NCBI GenBank assembly: GCA_019359115.1
Contig: JAHHHW010000085.1
Span: forward strand, 62,001 to 126,000
Source of the DNA: Pelatocladus maniniholoensis HA4357-MV3
GTDB lineage: Bacteria > Cyanobacteriota > Cyanobacteriia > Cyanobacteriales > Nostocaceae
Direction of reading: 5' to 3'
Length of the DNA: 64,000 nucleotides
In this document: positions 55,527 through 63,464 of the stretch, one piece after another
Layout: each line of letters starts with the position of its first letter
How positions within the stretch are numbered: position 1 is the stretch's first letter
Notes under the pieces: generated by a model
The model's database searches: none
What the model saw: only the letters and a program-made list of their open reading frames with translations
Told to the model about the DNA's origin: nothing
Made by a program: the position numbers and the translations under genes

Positions 55527-56666
55527 GTGACTGATCACCTCAACCCCTTGCAATCCCTTAAAGAAGGTCACTGGTTCAAGCTCATTTGCGGAGCCAGCTT
55601 TCAACACCTGCCTGCGGTCAGAAGTTTAACATTGGCCTATACACTAGCAGGTGCTGACTGTATAGATGTGGCTGCTGATCCGGCTGTAATTACCGCAGTT
55701 CGAGAGGCGCTACAAATTGCAGTTGAGTTTGCCGAAGACGCACAAGCACGAGGCTTTGCCAACAAAGGAAAGTCACCTTTTCTGATGGTTAGCCTTAATG
55801 ATGGAGAAGATCCACATTTTCGCAAAGCAAAATTTGATTCTACAGCGTGTCCTGCAAATTGCAATAGACCATGTGAAAGAATTTGCCCTGCACAGGCAAT
55901 AGAATTTAGCAACACACCAGAGCATTTTTCAGGAGTGATATCCAACAAGTGCTACGGTTGTGGTCGTTGCATACCAATCTGCCCTTATGGTATAATTAAT
56001 ACAAGCTCTTACGTAATAAAACCAGAAGCGATCGCACCATTAATTTTGTCATCTGGGGTAGATGCGATAGAAATTCATACACAAGTAGGACGTTTGACCG
56101 AATTTCAGCGATTGTGGCAAACGATAGCACCCTGGGTTGAGCAATTGAAGTTAGTAGCGATTAGTTGTCCAGACGGGGAGGGTATGATTGATTACCTACA
56201 TGCCCTGTATGATGCGATCGCGATCCATAATTATGCCTTGATTTGGCAAACCGACGGACGGCCAATGAGTGGTGATATTGGCGATGGCACCACCACAGCC
56301 GCAGTCAAATTAGGGCAAAAAGTCTTGGCAGCAAAATTACCTGGATACGTGCAGTTAGCAGGCGGCACGAACAGTTATACCGTTGCCAAGTTAAGGGCGA
56401 TGGGATTGTTGAGGAAAGGAGGACAAGGAAGAATTTCTCCCATATCTCCCCCCTCTTCCTTGTCTGCCTTGTCTCACATTTCTGGGATAGCCTACGGCAG
56501 CTACGCTCGTGTATTGCTGTCACCAATTCTAGAGCAGTTAGAAGCAAAGGAGGTGAATGACACCAGTGTCAAAACAACTGTCCGCCTAGAAAATGAACCA
56601 GAATTGCTCTGGCAAGCTGTTGGACTTGCTCATTCTCTTGTTTCCCAGCTCAAGTCACAGCAGTAG
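55527..56666 (+). CDS. ldpA: LdpA: iron-sulfur protein modulating the circadian clock
   Basis: The protein has 379 residues from GTG 55527. It opens with HWFKLICGASFQHLPAVRSL and has two cysteine clusters, CPANCNRPCERICP and CYGCGRCIPICP, for 4Fe-4S centres. LdpA (light-dependent period) senses redox state and tunes the clock, acting with CikA and other clock proteins. The C-terminal domain is interrupted at about residues 296-319 by a Ser/Pro-rich stretch that comes from a short tandem repeat; conserved sequence resumes with GIAYGSYARVLLSP. It is followed by the R3H ATPase 65 bp downstream. Confidence 0.9.
   Translation: MTDHLNPLQSLKEGHWFKLICGASFQHLPAVRSLTLAYTLAGADCIDVAADPAVITAVREALQIAVEFAEDAQARGFANKGKSPFLMVSLNDGEDPHFRKAKFDSTACPANCNRPCERICPAQAIEFSNTPEHFSGVISNKCYGCGRCIPICPYGIINTSSYVIKPEAIAPLILSSGVDAIEIHTQVGRLTEFQRLWQTIAPWVEQLKLVAISCPDGEGMIDYLHALYDAIAIHNYALIWQTDGRPMSGDIGDGTTTAAVKLGQKVLAAKLPGYVQLAGGTNSYTVAKLRAMGLLRKGGQGRISPISPPSSLSALSHISGIAYGSYARVLLSPILEQLEAKEVNDTSVKTTVRLENEPELLWQAVGLAHSLVSQLKSQQ
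56412..56481. repeat. STRR-type repeat in frame inside ldpA
   Basis: AGGAAAGGAGGACAAGGAAG is partly complementary to CTTCCTTGTCTGCCTTGTCT across a CTCCC-rich centre. The same motifs are intergenic at 7424 and 50500. The tract encodes a low-complexity peptide (GGQGRISPISPPSSLSALS). Confidence 0.7.
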
Positions 56667-56731
56667 GGTACGGGCAAACCTCGTGTCCAGAAAAGCATAT
56701 CGCTATCTCTAAAAACGTCACCATAATAAGC

Positions 56732-58465
56732 ATGACGATTACAGAAGATCTCCAAAAATTGTTAGATATTTTGCCCCAAGACCTGCGGCAAATATTAGAG
56801 AAGCATCCCCAACGAGATAGTTTAGTGGAAGTGGTTTTAGATCTGGGCCGTCGTCCAGAAGCCCGCTTCCCTCATCAAGCTGAGTATCTGAGCGAAATAC
56901 CCATCACTCAGAACGTGATCGATGATTGTATTCAGCGAGTGGGGAACTTTGGCGGAGATAATCGAGCCGGAATAGAGCAAACTTTGCATAGAATCAGTGC
57001 CATCCGTAACCGTAGCGGTAAAATTATTGGCTTAACTTGCCGTGTTGGTCGAGCGGTGTTTGGAACTATCGGCATGATTCGCGATTTAGTAGAAACTGGT
57101 AAATCGATTCTGATGCTGGGACGCCCAGGTGTGGGTAAAACCACTGCCTTACGAGAAATTGCCCGTGTTTTAGCGGATGAGTTGAACAAACGTGTAGTAA
57201 TTATTGACACCTCCAATGAAATCGCAGGTGATGGCGATGTTCCCCATCCAGCAATTGGGAAAGCCAGGCGGATGCAAGTTGCTCATCCCGAATTACAACA
57301 TCAAGTGATGATTGAAGCTGTGGAAAACCACATGCCAGAAGTGATCGTCATTGATGAAATTGGCACAGAACTAGAAGCTTTAGCCGCTCGCACCATTGCC
57401 GAACGAGGTGTACAGTTAGTAGGTACTGCCCACGGAAACCAAATTGAAAACTTAATCAAAAACCCAACTCTTGCGGATTTGGTTGGTGGTATCCAAGCTG
57501 TAACATTAGGCGATGATGAAGCCAGACGCCGAGGCAGTCAAAAAACTGTTTTGGAACGCAAAGCACCTCCCACTTTCGAGATTGCCGTGGAAATGCTGGA
57601 ACGACAACGCTGGGTAGTTCATGAGAGTGTAGCTGACACAGTAGATAGTTTACTAAGAGGGTATCAGCCTACTCCACAGGTGAGAACTGTTGACGAAGAA
57701 GGTAAGGTTAAGATTACACGCCAGTTAACACCTTTGAATGGCCGTTCCCAAACTCTCGCCAAAGAAGAGTCATTTGTACCAGCACGACAGTCAAACGGCT
57801 GGCGCTCATCTGGACAAATGCAAGCATTACCGTTACCTACTACCCAACCAAATAAGTTGAGTAGGCATAATGAATTTGACCGCTTACTAGATGAATCTTT
57901 CAACTATTTTGGTGGCTTCGATGATGCTGATAGTAAACTAGCAGGGCCCAATGGTGAAGATTTACCACTGCATATCTATCCCTATGGTGTCAGTCGTAGT
58001 CAATTAGAACAAGTAGTTGAAGTGTTGAATTTACCAGTGGTCTTGACAAAAGATATCGATAGTGCTGATTCAATTTTGGCATTGCGATCGCACGTCAAAA
58101 ACCATGCTAAATTGCGGCAAATGGCCAAAGCCAGACAAGTGCCAATCCACATGATTAAATCTAGTACCATACCGCAAATTACCCGTGGTTTGCGGCGGTT
58201 ACTCAACATTGATGATCCGGAAGTGACGGACGATCGCGAACTGCAATTATTCCTCCACAGCGCTACTGATGATGAAATTGACGCGTTAGAGGAAGCCAGA
58301 TTAGCAGTCGAAAATATTGTCATTCCTAAAGGACAACCTGTGGAATTATTACCCCGTTCTGCTCAAGTGCGGAAAATGCAGCATGAGTTGGTGGAACACT
58401 ACCGCTTAAAATCCAATAGCTTTGGGGAAGAACCAAATCGGCGTCTGCGGATTTATCCAGCATAA
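56732..58465 (+). CDS. Ycf45-like AAA ATPase with C-terminal R3H domain
   Basis: The 577-residue protein has an N-terminal P-loop ATPase related to SpoIIIAA/Ycf45 (Walker A GRPGVGKTT near residue 130, VIVIDEIGTELEALAART near 205), a middle linker and a C-terminal R3H nucleic-acid-binding domain (MQHELVEHYRLKSNS). The family name comes from the chloroplast reading frame ycf45. It probably acts on single-stranded nucleic acid; a precise role is not known. It lies 65 bp after ldpA on the same strand and could share its transcript. Confidence 0.88.
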   Translation: MTITEDLQKLLDILPQDLRQILEKHPQRDSLVEVVLDLGRRPEARFPHQAEYLSEIPITQNVIDDCIQRVGNFGGDNRAGIEQTLHRISAIRNRSGKIIGLTCRVGRAVFGTIGMIRDLVETGKSILMLGRPGVGKTTALREIARVLADELNKRVVIIDTSNEIAGDGDVPHPAIGKARRMQVAHPELQHQVMIEAVENHMPEVIVIDEIGTELEALAARTIAERGVQLVGTAHGNQIENLIKNPTLADLVGGIQAVTLGDDEARRRGSQKTVLERKAPPTFEIAVEMLERQRWVVHESVADTVDSLLRGYQPTPQVRTVDEEGKVKITRQLTPLNGRSQTLAKEESFVPARQSNGWRSSGQMQALPLPTTQPNKLSRHNEFDRLLDESFNYFGGFDDADSKLAGPNGEDLPLHIYPYGVSRSQLEQVVEVLNLPVVLTKDIDSADSILALRSHVKNHAKLRQMAKARQVPIHMIKSSTIPQITRGLRRLLNIDDPEVTDDRELQLFLHSATDDEIDALEEARLAVENIVIPKGQPVELLPRSAQVRKMQHELVEHYRLKSNSFGEEPNRRLRIYPA

Positions 58466-58831: not shown

Positions 58832-60160
58832 CTATAAACTAAACTCCGCAACATCATCTTCACCCATATCTAGATCTTTACCCACGGCAGTAGGCTTAAA
58901 ATCAGCACCATGAATTAACTCATTAAAAGGCTTACTAGGATTTTGATAAATTATATTTAAAACACTCAGAAAATCCCTAACAATTTCACCCGGAGTTAGT
59001 AAAGCTGCTGCACCCAAACGATTGACAATTTCTTGGACAAATTCTTTTAAATCAGAAGTTTTTAATATCTGTGTATAAGCAAAATTCAGAGCATGAATTT
59101 CTGTTAATGTTTGCAAAAGTAACAGAATTTCTTCTTGACTCAAAGGATTGAGCCGCATCACAGGCCCTAAAAATTCTTGTACACCAGCTTGAGTCACAAA
59201 ACGGCTTTCTTTTGTTCTTCGACGCCAGGCAGGATCAGCAAACAGCCCACGATTTGGATCTTCTAAAAATTTTGTTGTTCCACCTACAAATACTCCGAGA
59301 TTTTCGGCTTTACACTGCATAGTATCGTTGAAGATTGCTAGTAACCTGTTGTAATTTTTTTCGCGAGTTACAGTAGTGGGAATTTGATATATATTTGCTG
59401 CTTCATCCAGTAACAATACAAGCCCTTTGTAGCCAATTTCCGCAGTAAATTTAGCAATTAATTTAATGTAATCATACCAACTATCATCATCAATAATTAC
59501 CCGCACTCCTAAAGCTGCTTTAGCTTCTGTCTTAGTGCTATATTCTCCTCGCAGCCAACGCAAAGCAGAATTTTTTAGCTCATCATCATCTAGGCGATAA
59601 CCACGCCAATAAGCAATAATCACATTGCCAAAGTCAAAACCATGAACTAAGTCTTCTATATACTGAATTACTTCCCTAATTTTGTTTTCTACTTGGTCAT
59701 CAAAGCCATCATCATTGGGACGCATTCCAGTTTCTTTGGCAACTTCTTGTTGAATTTTACTAATCCATCCCTCTAAAATTGCTACTAAAGCACCGCCATC
59801 AGGGCGAGTTTTTGTAGCAAGGCGACTCATTAATTCTCGATAAGTTGCTAAACCTTCGTTGTTGCTTCCTGCTAGTCGGCGTTCTGAACACAAGTCCGCA
59901 TCAGTAACTACAAAACCTTGCTCCATAGCACGATTGCGAAGTAACTGTAGCATGAAGCTTTTACCTGAACCATAGTTCCCAATTATGAAGCGAAAAGCTG
60001 CTACTCCTTCTGCAATGTCATTGAGGTTTTGTAATAGGCTTTGTAGTTCTTTTTCCCGACCTACTGCTATATGTTCTAGTCCTACCCTTGGTACAACACC
60101 CGCGCCAAGAGAATTGATGATAGCAGTGGAGACTTTTTTCGAGATTTTGAGCTTTGCCAT
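58832..60160 (-). CDS. BrxD/DUF2791-type P-loop ATPase
   Basis: The 442-residue protein opens with the family sequence IINSLGAGVVPRVGLEHIAV and has Walker A GNYGSGKS at residues 61-68, YRELMSRLAT, and Walker B LVLLLDEAANIY near 247-257. The later part has VGGTTKFLEDPNRGLFAD and RLNPLSQEEI. This is the DUF2791 ATPase (BREX system ATP-binding) group, as in BrxD of type 2 BREX and in TerB-associated DNA-processing loci. The usual helicase partner is not adjacent. The upstream same-strand neighbour has a TerB_C-like domain, which fits a functional link. The final 20 residues are acidic. Confidence 0.85.
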   Translation of the reverse strand: MAKLKISKKVSTAIINSLGAGVVPRVGLEHIAVGREKELQSLLQNLNDIAEGVAAFRFIIGNYGSGKSFMLQLLRNRAMEQGFVVTDADLCSERRLAGSNNEGLATYRELMSRLATKTRPDGGALVAILEGWISKIQQEVAKETGMRPNDDGFDDQVENKIREVIQYIEDLVHGFDFGNVIIAYWRGYRLDDDELKNSALRWLRGEYSTKTEAKAALGVRVIIDDDSWYDYIKLIAKFTAEIGYKGLVLLLDEAANIYQIPTTVTREKNYNRLLAIFNDTMQCKAENLGVFVGGTTKFLEDPNRGLFADPAWRRRTKESRFVTQAGVQEFLGPVMRLNPLSQEEILLLLQTLTEIHALNFAYTQILKTSDLKEFVQEIVNRLGAAALLTPGEIVRDFLSVLNIIYQNPSKPFNELIHGADFKPTAVGKDLDMGEDDVAEFSL

Positions 60161-60242
60161 GTAAATTTACCTCACTTCCATGTATTTTAGCTTGAAGGTG
60201 AGCTTTGCTTTCACATGGAGTAAGGTCAAGAAATAGGGGTGC

Positions 60243-60366
60243 AGGGGAAAGGACGTCTTAAAAAGGAAGAGAAATAGAATCAAAGTCTCCCTTTGTAAGG
60301 GGGACTTTGGGGGATCTAAAACGTTTTGCTACACCGACAAGAGGGCTTTTCAAACAACCTCTAAGA
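60243..60366. repeat. Repeat family C, copy between the ATPase and the coiled-coil gene
   Basis: Read on the minus strand it begins CTTAGAGGTTGTTTGAAAAG and continues with AGATCCCCC and AGTCCCCCTTACAAAG, matching the fragment at 49102 in order and sequence. It fills most of the 241-bp gap between two genes that otherwise look like one operon, so it may be a later insertion. Confidence 0.6.
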
Positions 60367-60401
60367 AGCAACTCTATAATTATTGCCCAGAGGCTTCGCT
60401 C

Positions 60402-61685
60402 TTACTTAATATTTTTGTAGATTGCGATCGCTTTTTCCACGTCACTTTTATACTCTGGATAAATTTCTGGAGTTGCTACATTTGGATCAATGAGCAATTC
60501 GCCAATCGTGTTATTAGCATTTTCATTGATAGAATCAATTAATAAATTTGGCATAGTAATATTAGCTTCAGCTATTTTTTTTATAGCTACATTTGGATTC
60601 TCCTCTTCAATAATTGCTTTTAATACTTGAATTTCTGAGTCAGACAAATGATTGAGTAAGCTAGACCATTCTGAGGTAAATACTTCTAGATTATTGGATG
60701 TCTCTAGCTCATCTACTGTATCAAGTAAATCAGCAAACGGAAAAAGGTCTACATCTTCTTCCTGATTATTTTCTAATACATTACTGGAATCTAAATTTTC
60801 TATTTGCTGTAATAATTCCCATACTTGATTTTGTAAATGATCGCGTTCATCTTGCAATAAGGAAATTTGACTTTCCAATTGTTGGAGTTGGTTTTGCTGC
60901 TCTGCTAATTGTACTTTTAATGAATTTAGATTAATTTCTGTCTTTTCTGTTTCTAGCTTTTTGTCAAGCAACAATTGATTTTGTTGCTGATATTCTGCTT
61001 CTATTTCTTGAACTTGAAGTCTCATTTCATGTAACTTTTCTTCTAGTTGAGGTTTAAGCCTTTCTAGAAGAGTTAAGTTACTTTCTAGGTCTTGCCTTTG
61101 CTGCAACAGTTCACACAGTTGATTATGTAACTGATTGATCTCAGCTTTAGAAACACTACAATTTAATTCTAATCGGCGTTTTTCTGCATTGATAGCAGAC
61201 AAAGAATTATTATGTTCTAATTTCGCTTTTTCTAGTTCGGTAATTTCATTTTGTAAAAGAACAATTTGTGATTCCAACTGTTTTTTTTCGATTACATAAC
61301 TGCTTAACTCACGGTTAAGACTGTCTCTTTGATTTCGACGTTCATTTATTTGATTTTGTAATTTATTCGATTCTTGATACAATAAAGAATGTTGAGTTTC
61401 TAATTCATTGACTTCTGCAACTACACGAGATTTCAAACCCTCCAGTTCTTTAATACGTCTGTGGAGAGAATCTAGAACTAGCATTTCACTAGCTCGGCGT
61501 CGCTTGTCTATAAACAAGGCTGCAAGATAGGTAGAAAATATTGTGATGATGCCTGTGAAAAAGGCATTTTTAACATCCCAATTACTAAAGACTAAACCAA
61601 GTCCGAAACTCGCACCAAAGGCAACTACACCGAGAATAAGTCGATTACTTACTGTTGTTGACTGCATATTGCTGGTTTTGAGCAT
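60402..61685 (-). CDS. Membrane-anchored coiled-coil protein with TerB_C-like tail
   Basis: The 427-residue protein has two N-terminal hydrophobic segments (ILGVVAFGASFGLGLVFS and NAFFTGIITIFSTYLAALF), a very long coiled coil (about residues 65-300, rich in QLESQI and LQNQ heptads), an acidic linker, and a globular C-terminal domain from about 335. The tail (WSSLLNHLSDSEIQVLKAII, NITMPNLLIDSINENANNTI) follows the pattern I know from the TerB C-terminal domain of tellurite-resistance-type proteins. It should present a cytosolic domain from a membrane anchor. It starts 18 bp after the DUF815 gene and is probably co-transcribed with it. The start can be ATG 61685 or 61667. Confidence 0.65.
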   Translation of the reverse strand: MLKTSNMQSTTVSNRLILGVVAFGASFGLGLVFSNWDVKNAFFTGIITIFSTYLAALFIDKRRRASEMLVLDSLHRRIKELEGLKSRVVAEVNELETQHSLLYQESNKLQNQINERRNQRDSLNRELSSYVIEKKQLESQIVLLQNEITELEKAKLEHNNSLSAINAEKRRLELNCSVSKAEINQLHNQLCELLQQRQDLESNLTLLERLKPQLEEKLHEMRLQVQEIEAEYQQQNQLLLDKKLETEKTEINLNSLKVQLAEQQNQLQQLESQISLLQDERDHLQNQVWELLQQIENLDSSNVLENNQEEDVDLFPFADLLDTVDELETSNNLEVFTSEWSSLLNHLSDSEIQVLKAIIEEENPNVAIKKIAEANITMPNLLIDSINENANNTIGELLIDPNVATPEIYPEYKSDVEKAIAIYKNIK

Positions 61686-61703
61686 ATTTCTTTCTTTTGA
61701 CTT

Positions 61704-63047
61704 TTAATTTTTAACTTGGATTGCAGCAAGATTCATATCTGCTTTTAAAAAATCTACAAATTGTCGTGCTGTTCTTCCAGAACGACCGTTATGACGAGTT
61801 GCCCATTGTAAAGCTTTGTATTCTAAATCTTCCTGACTGATATTAATTCCTGCTAAATCCGCAAGATGCCGGATAATTTTTAAATAAGTTTTTTGATCAG
61901 ATCCTTCAAAAGTGAGAGTCAGACCAAAGCGATCGCTAAAGGAAAGTTTTTCCTGCATTGTATCCCAGGCATGAACTTCATCATGATCGCGGGGAGCAGG
62001 TCTATCAGCGAAAAACTCCCGTACTAAGTGGCGACGGTTAGAAGTAGCATACACCACGATGTTTTGTGGACGTGCAGTTAAATTCCCTTCTAACACGACT
62101 TTTAACGCCTTAAAAGCATCGTCATCTTCCTCAAATGAAAGATCATCAACAAAGATAATAAATTTATGCGGTACTCCTCGCAAATGTTCCACAATCACTG
62201 GTAAGTCTTGTAGTCGTGATTTTCCCACTTCCAACAGTCGCAAGTTACTCTCTCCATACTCATTCAGCAAAGCTTTAACTAAAGAAGATTTACCAGAACC
62301 ACGACTACCATAAAGTAATACGTGTAGAGCCACTTGTCCCGACAACAAAAATTCCGTATTTTTCAACAAAGCTTCTTTTTGCGACTCATAACCCACAAGT
62401 TCGCTTAATTTAACTGTATCAGGATAAGTTATACCCACAAACTGCCCATCTTGCCAACGTAGGGCTTTGTACTCTGCAAATAAACCCGTACCGTATTGCT
62501 GATAGTATGTCGCCAAATATTCTACAGCGTCTGACCAATTTTCCAACTGTTGTAGAGAACTAATAAACTGTGTTTCTACACCCGCTATCCCATCCTGCTC
62601 TAAATACCACACTACTGGTGAAACAGGTAAATGAGCAATATTCTGTACCCATTCACTCAAAATAGCGCTGCTACATTCATATAAATTTTGGAGTGCGAGT
62701 AAATCATGTTTGGCTGCTGCTACCAAAGCAGTTGGTAAATTCTCAAACTCTTGCTGTTGAGCTTGTTTTGTAAAAGGATTCTCAGCTTTGAGAATTTGAG
62801 TAATTAGATATTCTTCCCAGTTTTGATTTTTTGTTGCTAAGGCTCGAAAGTAACTGCCATAAGCTTGCAGACAACTCCTAGCATCTGCTTCACTGTAACG
62901 AATAGCTTGTAACAGATCAAGAAACGCTATACCTACTTCCGTTTGCAGGACAGATTGGTAGAGTAAAAGAGAAGCTGCTTGGCGTTGGAGAAATTGAATC
63001 TTTGCGTAAGACGAATTACTTGCCGTAGGCATAACTTGATTATCCAT
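61704..63047 (-). CDS. DUF815-family AAA ATPase
   Basis: The 447-residue protein has an N-terminal helical part (residues 1-200), then LLSGQVALHVLLYGSRGSGKSSLVKAL with Walker A GSRGSGKS, FIIFVDDLSFEEDDDAF as Walker B, VVYATSNRRHLVREFFADRP as sensor region, and a C-terminal helical lid (NGRSGRTARQFVDFL). This is the DUF815 ATPase group, whose function is not known to me; an AAA chaperone or motor role is likely. It is the first gene of the leftward three-gene set, with ATG at 63047. Confidence 0.87.
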   Translation of the reverse strand: MDNQVMPTASNSSYAKIQFLQRQAASLLLYQSVLQTEVGIAFLDLLQAIRYSEADARSCLQAYGSYFRALATKNQNWEEYLITQILKAENPFTKQAQQQEFENLPTALVAAAKHDLLALQNLYECSSAILSEWVQNIAHLPVSPVVWYLEQDGIAGVETQFISSLQQLENWSDAVEYLATYYQQYGTGLFAEYKALRWQDGQFVGITYPDTVKLSELVGYESQKEALLKNTEFLLSGQVALHVLLYGSRGSGKSSLVKALLNEYGESNLRLLEVGKSRLQDLPVIVEHLRGVPHKFIIFVDDLSFEEDDDAFKALKVVLEGNLTARPQNIVVYATSNRRHLVREFFADRPAPRDHDEVHAWDTMQEKLSFSDRFGLTLTFEGSDQKTYLKIIRHLADLAGINISQEDLEYKALQWATRHNGRSGRTARQFVDFLKADMNLAAIQVKN

Positions 63048-63128: not shown

Positions 63129-63464
63129 ATGAATTTAGGTATTGTTGCCGCCCTTGCTTACGGCATCTTGACAGTAGTGGGTGGTATTGTAGGTTACATA
63201 ACGGCTGGTAGTAATATGTCACTTTTTAGTGGCAGTATCAGTGGTTTAATACTCATATTTTCGGCTTTAATACAAATTCAAGGTCAAAACTGGGGTTTGA
63301 CTCTAGCAGCTATTGTTACAGCCATATTAATAGTTGTTTTTGCATTTAGATTAGCTAAAACACGTAAGTTTATGCCTGCGGGATTGATGACAATTTTAGG
63401 TATGTTGACGCTAGCGCTGATTGTACATCAATTTCAAATTATGAAATTAGGTAGAGGGGGATAG
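63129..63464 (+). CDS. TMEM14-like small membrane protein
   Basis: The 111-residue protein has four hydrophobic helices separated by short loops and the family pattern GILTVVGGIVGYITAGSN and FMPAGLMTILG. It matches the TMEM14/UPF0136 family, which in plants and animals includes fatty-acid and heme-related carriers of plastids and mitochondria. The bacterial substrate is unknown. It is divergent from the DUF815 gene across 81 bp. Confidence 0.8.
   Translation: MNLGIVAALAYGILTVVGGIVGYITAGSNMSLFSGSISGLILIFSALIQIQGQNWGLTLAAIVTAILIVVFAFRLAKTRKFMPAGLMTILGMLTLALIVHQFQIMKLGRGG

What the first reader, a model, noticed from the sequence alone, without database searches (positions are those of the whole stretch)
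58832..63047. Candidate undescribed system: DUF815 ATPase, membrane coiled coil with TerB_C-like tail, and BrxD-type ATPase
Three leftward genes put two different P-loop ATPases on either side of a two-helix membrane anchor with a coiled coil of about 235 residues and a TerB_C-like head. Seen: Walker motifs GSRGSGKS and GNYGSGKS, 18 bp between the first two genes, and a 241-bp gap mostly filled by a dispersed repeat before the third. Known: BrxD/DUF2791 ATPases occur in type 2 BREX and in TerB-associated DNA-processing loci, normally with a helicase. Inference: here the helicase is absent or elsewhere, and the set forms a membrane-tethered ATPase module, perhaps for defence or DNA/membrane stress.
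Basis: partly seen in the sequence, partly recalled or inferred. Interest (0 to 1): 0.72.

Follow-up and report, generated by a model that had tools for sequence, protein, structure and literature searches.

The report
Septal protein on a Shango-type ATPase–helicase module
The three genes belong to a conserved block of heterocyst-forming cyanobacteria in which a known cell-septum protein sits beside an ATPase of the Shango anti-phage family, whose partner helicase is encoded elsewhere in the same genome, a link between bacterial immunity and multicellularity that we did not find in print.

Summary
In detail: a DUF815 AAA+ ATPase, a two-helix membrane coiled coil with a genuine TerB_C head, and a BrxD-like ATPase, all leftward. 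It is not undescribed as such: the coiled-coil protein matches SepT (All2460), a published septal protein of Anabaena whose paper already notes two P-loop NTPase neighbours. What is new is the nature of the module. The ATPase is SngB of Shango (578 bits; BrxD 175). The 'missing' helicase, SngC, is on another contig of the same genome (834 bits). In 193 genomes of the window's family SngB and SngC are both present in 169, both absent in 19, discordant in 5, although unlinked in 10 of 19 genomes checked. SepT fills the SngA slot: TerB_C head kept, membrane coiled coil in place of TerB_N/TerB. Among the relatives compared, SngB, SngC and the head are all closest to Paenibacillus plasmid Shango. 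The module is near-universal in the family, apparently vertical, and under purifying selection, unlike a mobile defence cassette. DUF815 is a widespread cyanobacterial gene and probably not a dedicated part. Most likely this is a Shango-derived helicase-loading module tethered to the envelope or septum by SepT; whether it still fights phage is open.

The parts
58832..60160 (-). SngB: Shango/BrxD-type AAA+ ATPase, 442 aa; Walker A GNYGSGKS at residues 61-68 (about 59957-59980), Walker B-like VLLLDEA at residue 248
   Evidence: PF10923 547 bits; PADLOC SngB 578 bits vs BrxD 175; Walker A in 36 of 36 rows compared; the Walker B pattern used was not found in five divergent rows
60161..60401 (.). 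SepT-SngB intergenic gap, longer than in most relatives, with extra repeat-like sequence
   Evidence: alignment with 5 relatives shows sequence not shared; gaps in named loci; 20-mer once in genome, 3 near-copies in window
60402..61685 (-). SepT orthologue (SngA slot): two N-terminal membrane helices, long coiled coil, TerB_C head
   Evidence: PF15615 56.2 bits, PADLOC SngA C-terminal half 65.7 bits, AlphaFold model, only TerB_C match of the genome, description of All2460 in PMC10653889
61509..61640 (-). two membrane helices of SepT (residues 16-34 and 41-59) with positive flanks: N-in/C-in, coiled coil predicted cytoplasmic
   Evidence: hydropathy; K+R mean 2.02 before, 0.76 between, 4.15 after the helices over 41 rows
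60408..60674 (-). TerB_C head of SepT (residues 338-426), motif MPxLLIDSIN..A..TIGELLI
   Evidence: Pfam; hhalign with five classic SngA C-termini, probability 85.8, E 5e-6; model pLDDT 74-84 at residues 341-420
61704..63047 (-). DUF815 AAA+ ATPase, Walker A GSRGSGKS; likely start at 63032; conserved upstream neighbour, probably not a dedicated component
   Evidence: PF05673 314.7 bits; widespread without SngB; stop codons before Met6 in 4 of 35 relatives
63129..63464 (+). divergent TMEM14-family membrane protein gene, frequent neighbour of the block
   Evidence: PF03647 83 bits; matched in 68 of 80 named loci

Best explanation
The locus is two thirds of a Shango-derived, envelope-anchored ATPase-helicase module; the third part, the SngC helicase, is encoded elsewhere in the genome. 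SepT replaces SngA: its two membrane helices and coiled coil carry a TerB_C head into the cytoplasm at the membrane and the intercellular septum. That head binds the AAA+ ATPase SngB, which, like an ORC/Cdc6-type loader, loads or switches on the SF2 (BrxHI/Lhr-like) helicase SngC on DNA near the envelope. In the window's family (Nostocaceae in the wide sense) the set has become a fixed chromosomal function, most likely processing or surveillance of DNA at the septum or membrane. Shown here: identities, co-occurrence, conserved catalytic motifs, shared ancestry with Shango, purifying selection. Shown by others: septal location of SepT and co-precipitation of All2459. Inferred: that All2459 is SngB, that the head is the docking site, helicase loading, and DNA at the envelope as substrate. 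DUF815 is taken as a conserved neighbour.
For: SngB and SngC identities: 578 vs 175 bits, 834 vs 456 bits for SngC vs BrxHI. SngC is in the same genome, G000:C150:9042-11189. Phylum sample: the same 29 of 194 genomes have strong SngB-type and SngC-type matches; 26 of these also have TerB_C, and the other three are better explained as BREX-type pairs. Family sample of 193: both 169, neither 19, SngB only 4, SngC only 1. TerB_C is in 173 of 173 genomes with SngB, and in 15 without it. In G204 SngB and SngC are both broken up while SepT and DUF815 stay open. TerB_N matched in 0 of 193 genomes (no positive control in that call). Trees of SngB (36 rows) and SngC (34 rows) agree: one cyanobacterial clade next to Paenibacillus Shango. 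Paenibacillus plasmid SngB is 53%, SngC 48%, head 34% identical over 62 residues. DUF815-SepT-SngB-SngC contiguous in L142, L143, L153. dN/dS 0.06-0.11 for SngB, 0.12-0.18 for SepT. SepT septal location and All2459 co-precipitation.
Against: SngB and SngC are missing from 20 and 23 of 193 genomes while SepT is usually kept, so SepT's septal role does not need them. No experiment shows SngB or SngC at the septum. The TerB_C-SngB contact and helicase loading are inferred. The sepT phenotype reported is in cell size, peptidoglycan and nanopores; no DNA phenotype is in the parts read. The genomes counted are related, so Fisher P values overstate the case. All2459 = SngB rests on gene order, not on a sequence compared here. 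One published AlphaFold 3 model places the SepT coiled coil in the periplasm (PMC12096826).
Confidence: 0.58

Rival explanations
1. It is still an anti-phage system: a core, chromosomally fixed variant of Shango whose sensor part is the membrane-anchored SepT, which also moonlights in septum formation.
For: Enzyme motifs are kept. Shango restricts phage in Pseudomonas (PMC10250203, passages). SngB and SngC are lost together in smaller genomes (median 5.1 Mb without SngB, 20 genomes; 7.6 Mb with it, 173) and broken up in G204, thought to be a vertically transmitted symbiont, while SepT stays.
Against: Present in 173 of 193 genomes of the family, tree without sign of transfer inside the family, genes scattered. 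SepT has no TerB_N or TerB. Six of 193 genomes show what a patchy, closely linked relative looks like: a second BrxD/BrxHI-type pair, with PglZ or PglX in the two loci scanned.
Confidence: 0.3
2. SepT is purely a cell-wall and septum scaffold, and SngB and DUF815 are NTPases that regulate the scaffold (MinD/ParA-like positioning, as its discoverers hinted); the helicase is unrelated to it.
For: Published phenotypes and interactions with MreB, RodA, FtsW, SepF, ZipN, SepJ and PBPs. TerB_C (SepT) is kept without SngB in 15 of 193 genomes.
Against: The neighbours match PF10923 and PF05673, not MinD/ParA families. SngB goes with SngC in 169 genomes with 5 discordant, follows the same tree, and is contiguous with it in several genomes.
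Confidence: 0.2
3. One reading: DUF815, the coiled coil and the BrxD-type ATPase form one three-part machine.
For: DUF815 lies directly upstream of SepT in 76 of 76 named loci that hold the stretch, and stays beside SepT in 5 of 5 loci fetched from family members without SngB. The published synteny block and the nitrogen-stepdown induction cover all three genes.
Against: Strong DUF815 is in 70 of 194 phylum genomes, 47 without strong SngB. DUF815 is unlinked to the TerB_C gene in G054, G110, G168 and G179, and about 11 kb away on the other strand in G085. Only All2459, not All2461, is named among co-precipitated proteins in the text read; the full list is in a data set not seen.
Confidence: 0.12

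Closest known systems
Shango (SngA-SngB-SngC), PMC10250203 (passages)
   Same: SngB ATPase and SngC DEAD/DEAH helicase are full-length family members by PADLOC models; the TerB_C head of SngA is shared; Paenibacillus plasmid Shango is the nearest relative among those compared
   Different: SngA's TerB_N and TerB are replaced by two membrane helices and a coiled coil; the helicase is often unlinked; near-universal in the window's family; no anti-phage test
SepT (All2460) synteny block of Anabaena sp. PCC 7120, PMC10653889
   Same: same architecture (two TM helices, coiled coil, TerB-C), length (426 vs 427 aa) and flanking P-loop NTPase genes; the same gene block by description
   Different: the main text has no occurrence of helicase, ATPase, BREX, Shango, phage or defense; the neighbours are there likened to MinD/ParA
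Type 2 BREX BrxD-BrxHI dyad, PMC12839542 (passages)
   Same: homologous ATPase-helicase pair; proposed loader-helicase logic
   Different: the window's SngB scores 176 bits against a cut-off of 350 in NCBIfam BREX_BrxD and higher for Shango in PADLOC; real BREX-type pairs exist in a few relatives
Ter-associated DNA-processing systems (recalled, Anantharaman and colleagues 2012; not held)
   Same: TerB-family domains with an ATPase and helicase
   Different: not compared with the paper itself

Membership tests
Shango | SngB ATPase | tested here: met
   PADLOC SngB 578 bits over residues 1-441
Shango | SngC DEAD/DEAH helicase in the genome | tested here: met
   834 bits, G000:C150:9042-11189; motifs ATAAGKTE, DEIH, SAT, QRLGRTGR
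Shango | SngA with TerB_N, usually TerB, and TerB_C | tested here: not met
   only TerB_C in SepT; TerB_N in 0 of 193 genomes of the family, without a positive control in that call
Shango | three genes in one tight cassette | tested here: not met
   SngC on another contig here; contiguous with SepT and SngB in some relatives only
Shango | anti-phage activity | not testable with these tools
   needs deletion or expression and phage challenge
SepT | two N-terminal TM helices, coiled coil, TerB-C, about 426 aa | tested here: met
   published description; no direct sequence comparison with All2460
SepT | flanked by two P-loop NTPase genes | tested here: met
   paper
SepT | septal localisation and nanopore phenotype | not testable with these tools
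   shown for All2460 by others
Type 2 BREX | BrxD equivalog score | tested here: not met
   NCBIfam NF033438 176 bits, cut-off 350
Type 2 BREX | adjacent PglX, PglZ, BrxC, PglW | tested here: inconclusive
   none among 15 of the 43 window ORFs of 150 aa or more, plus one shorter ORF, that were scanned with Pfam; the rest of the window and genome was not scanned for them

The most novel reading that the evidence does not exclude
An anti-phage Shango cassette was captured by an ancestor of heterocyst-forming cyanobacteria and domesticated into a septum-anchored helicase-loading machine. SngA became SepT, and the module now handles or polices DNA at the junctions between cells of a multicellular filament.
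Probability: 0.35. Interest if true: 0.88.

Novelty: new variant of a known kind. Interest (0 to 1): 0.68.

Why it matters
It gives SepT, a septal protein with a strong phenotype, two candidate enzyme partners: an AAA+ loader and a helicase of the Shango family. If right, an immune module has been turned into, or shares parts with, the multicellularity machinery of cyanobacteria. It also predicts the side of the membrane on which the SepT head lies, a point on which published models differ, and each step can be tested in Anabaena.

Tried and rejected
Considered and rejected: type 2 BREX (score test); helicase absent (it is on another contig); mobile defence island (near-universal in the family); DUF815 as the defining part; MinD/ParA-like neighbours. 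PDB sequence searches with SngB and DUF815 gave nothing at E 0.001; with SngC they gave other SF2 helicases, best an ATP-dependent DNA helicase. The AlphaFold model of DUF815 was poor (mean pLDDT 53.6) and its Foldseek hits are varied AAA+ proteins, so no function was drawn from it. The SepT model was not searched against structures because a lone coiled coil matches many. No genome search for TerB (PF05099) was run. The TerB_N genome search had no positive control, although the same model matches classic SngA proteins at 49 to 228 bits. Of the 29 phylum genomes with both enzymes I first counted all as Shango-type; one search showed BREX models score higher in G007, G032 and (ATPase only tested) G001, and the text now says so. 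My first SngC Walker A pattern missed 17 of 34 rows; a looser one finds it in 33 of 34.

What the papers rest on: PMC10653889: abstract, outline, found passages, and the whole of the interactions and discussion sections. PMC10250203, PMC12839542, PMC12096826, PMC12421839: found passages only. The not-in-print statement rests, open-licence PMC papers only; no preprint server and few subscription papers were covered.
Full report
What is there. The three leftward genes are real and at the stated places. Upstream first: a 447-aa DUF815 AAA+ protein, a 427-aa membrane coiled-coil protein, and a 442-aa BrxD-like ATPase. Pfam gives DUF815 314.7 bits, TerB_C 56.2 bits (cut-off 26.3) and BrxC_BrxD 547.3 bits. 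TerB_C and BrxC_BrxD are each found once in the whole genome, here.

Which family. PADLOC names the ATPase SngB (578 bits, against 175 for BrxD), and the coiled-coil protein matches the C-terminal half of SngA (65.7 bits, profile 265-526 of 528); weaker matches to other coiled-coil defence proteins in the same call are what any coiled coil gives. NCBIfam's BREX BrxD model gives 176 bits against a cut-off of 350. So the relative is Shango, the three-gene TerB/ATPase/helicase anti-phage system (PMC10250203, passages), rather than BREX.

The helicase. It is elsewhere: G000:C150:9042-11189 scores 834 bits for SngC, against 456 for BrxHI, and keeps the helicase motifs. In the 194-genome phylum sample the same 29 genomes carry strong PF10923 (360 bits or more) and strong SngC-model matches (400 bits or more); the next lower values are 178 and 274 bits, and every genome has weak helicase matches to the SngC model, not counted. 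TerB_C is in 26 of the 29. The other three, G001, G007 and G032, score higher for BREX models where scanned. Of the 26, 23 have a SepT-like protein or lie in the window's family, and three distant ones (G016, G018, G116) have adjacent genes; the SngA of G018 and G116 is of the classic kind. Among the 19 genomes of the window's family (f1) in that sample with both enzymes, 9 have them within 4 kb and 10 have them more than 50 kb apart or on different contigs (read).

Co-occurrence. In 193 genomes of f1 both enzymes are present in 169 and both absent in 19. SngB only: G204, G207, G242, G260. Joint absence falls in six genera (g5, g6, g13, g14, g106, g124), and in g5, g13 and g14 other members keep both, which suggests several joint losses. 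These are related genomes and no species tree was built, so the Fisher P of 2e-21 overstates the case.

SepT. The coiled-coil protein fits SepT, All2460 of Anabaena sp. PCC 7120: 426 aa, two TM helices at residues 12-50, coiled coils, TerB-C, P-loop NTPase genes on both sides in a conserved block. SepT-GFP lies at the septa and periphery; mutants have altered cell size, peptidoglycan incorporation and nanopores; All2459 co-precipitates with SepT. By transcription order All2459 should be SngB and All2461 DUF815; I had no PCC 7120 sequence to check this. The paper's main text has no occurrence of helicase, ATPase, phage, BREX, Shango or defense.

SepT in the SngA slot. Classic SngA in a distant member of the phylum (G018), G116, Sulfitobacter and Halocatena has TerB_N, TerB (just under its cut-off in Halocatena) and TerB_C; the two Paenibacillus ones show TerB_N and TerB_C only. 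The 193 genomes of f1 have no TerB_N match (with the caution that nothing rang in its controls either). TerB_C occurs in 188 of 193, in 173 of 173 genomes with SngB, and in 15 without it. Profile comparison of the SepT family with five classic SngA C-termini gives probability 85.8 and E 5e-6, over the motif MPxLLIDSIN..A..TIGELLI.

History. SngB and SngC trees both give one clade of cyanobacteria (f1 and four genomes of other families) next to two Paenibacillus plasmid Shango systems (SngB: 94/98 support; SngC: 100/99). They hold 36 and 34 rows that I chose, are rooted at the midpoint for drawing only, and the program warns of long branches in the outer rows. In the plasmid collection Paenibacillus SngB is the best hit (53%). 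Among the loci compared, Paenibacillus SngC is the closest (48%) and only the two Paenibacillus SngA proteins gave a BLAST match to SepT (34% over 62 and 35% over 71 residues). In G022, G040 and G081 the order DUF815-SepT-SngB-SngC is contiguous (L143, L153, L142). SepT lies beside SngB in 79 of 80 named loci; these are the best 80 of 137 relatives, all close kin. The exception, L080, lies on a contig of the same length as that of G207, where SepT and DUF815 lie together away from SngB. SngC lies in the fetched stretch in 19 of 80; many stretches are cut by contig ends. dN/dS is 0.06-0.11 for SngB, 0.12-0.18 for SepT and 0.11-0.12 for DUF815 in five comparisons each.

Loss. In G204 the SngB frame is 230 aa and SngC shows as two pieces of about 100 aa in the stretch fetched, while SepT (438 aa from the first start, 420 from an inner Met) and DUF815 stay open; in G242, same genus, the SngB frame is 252 aa. 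Chromosome length and SepT length suggest that G204 is Nostoc azollae 0708 (the chromosome length is recalled; PMC12421839 lists a 420-aa SepT there). In five of five loci fetched from f1 genomes without SngB, SepT still follows DUF815; in G143 it is truncated. A sixth locus with TerB_C but no SngB, from G035 outside the class, holds a 244-aa frame that does not match SepT. Genomes without SngB are smaller (median 5.1 vs 7.6 Mb). So SepT can do without SngB and SngC, but in f1 SngB is not seen without a TerB_C gene.

Topology. K+R counts flanking the two helices (2.02 before, 0.76 between, 4.15 after, means of 41 rows) favour N-in/C-in, with the coiled coil and head in the cytoplasm, where SngB would be. 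This agrees with the predictions in the SepT paper and disagrees with a later AlphaFold 3 suggestion (PMC12096826).

DUF815. A strong match is in 70 of 194 phylum genomes, 47 without strong SngB. It lies next to SepT in 76 of 76 named loci that hold the stretch, but is unlinked to the TerB_C gene in G054, G110, G168 and G179. It is best seen as an old, conserved neighbour whose role is open.

Mechanism. By analogy with the BrxD-BrxHI dyad, for which loader and helicase roles have been proposed (PMC12839542, passages), SngB would load or activate SngC, and SepT would fix this at the membrane or septum. The first step is inference from homology; the second rests on published SepT location and co-precipitation of All2459. 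Whether the target is phage DNA or the cell's own DNA at the septum cannot be settled from sequence.

Noticed in passing
G203, G227, G296, G300, G337, G347 (L179-L184): Six of 193 genomes of the family carry a second, closely linked BrxD/BrxHI-type pair; with PglZ in L181 and PglX in L179, the only two scanned, so probably type 2 BREX.
   Followed up: partly
L132, L133, L134 (G018, G016, G116): Distant members of the phylum carry adjacent Shango genes; SngA is complete in L132 and L134 and seems cut by the contig end in L133. The SngA of G116 starts with a hydrophobic helix, as does that of Sulfitobacter (L165).
   Followed up: partly
L135, L136, L137 (G001, G007, G032): BREX-type ATPase-helicase pairs by PADLOC score (with PglZ in L136; only the ATPase scanned in L135), which also pass loose SngB/SngC thresholds.
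   Followed up: partly
window 61704-63047: DUF815 start is probably Met6 (63032): 4 of 35 relatives have a stop codon just before it.
   Followed up: yes
window 63129-63464: A TMEM14-family membrane protein gene diverges from DUF815 and is matched in 68 of 80 named loci.
   Followed up: no
L127 8181-8903: A 240-aa protein without a Pfam match sits between SngB and SngC in G056.
   Followed up: no
L144 (G204) and L145 (G242): TerB_C of these SepT proteins has the two highest scores of the family sample (120 and 95 bits), although their SngB is broken up.
   Followed up: no
window 55527-58465: LdpA and an AAA/R3H protein gene lie on the other side of SngB, convergent with it; this arrangement is matched in only 3 of 80 named loci (L003-L005).
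   Followed up: partly
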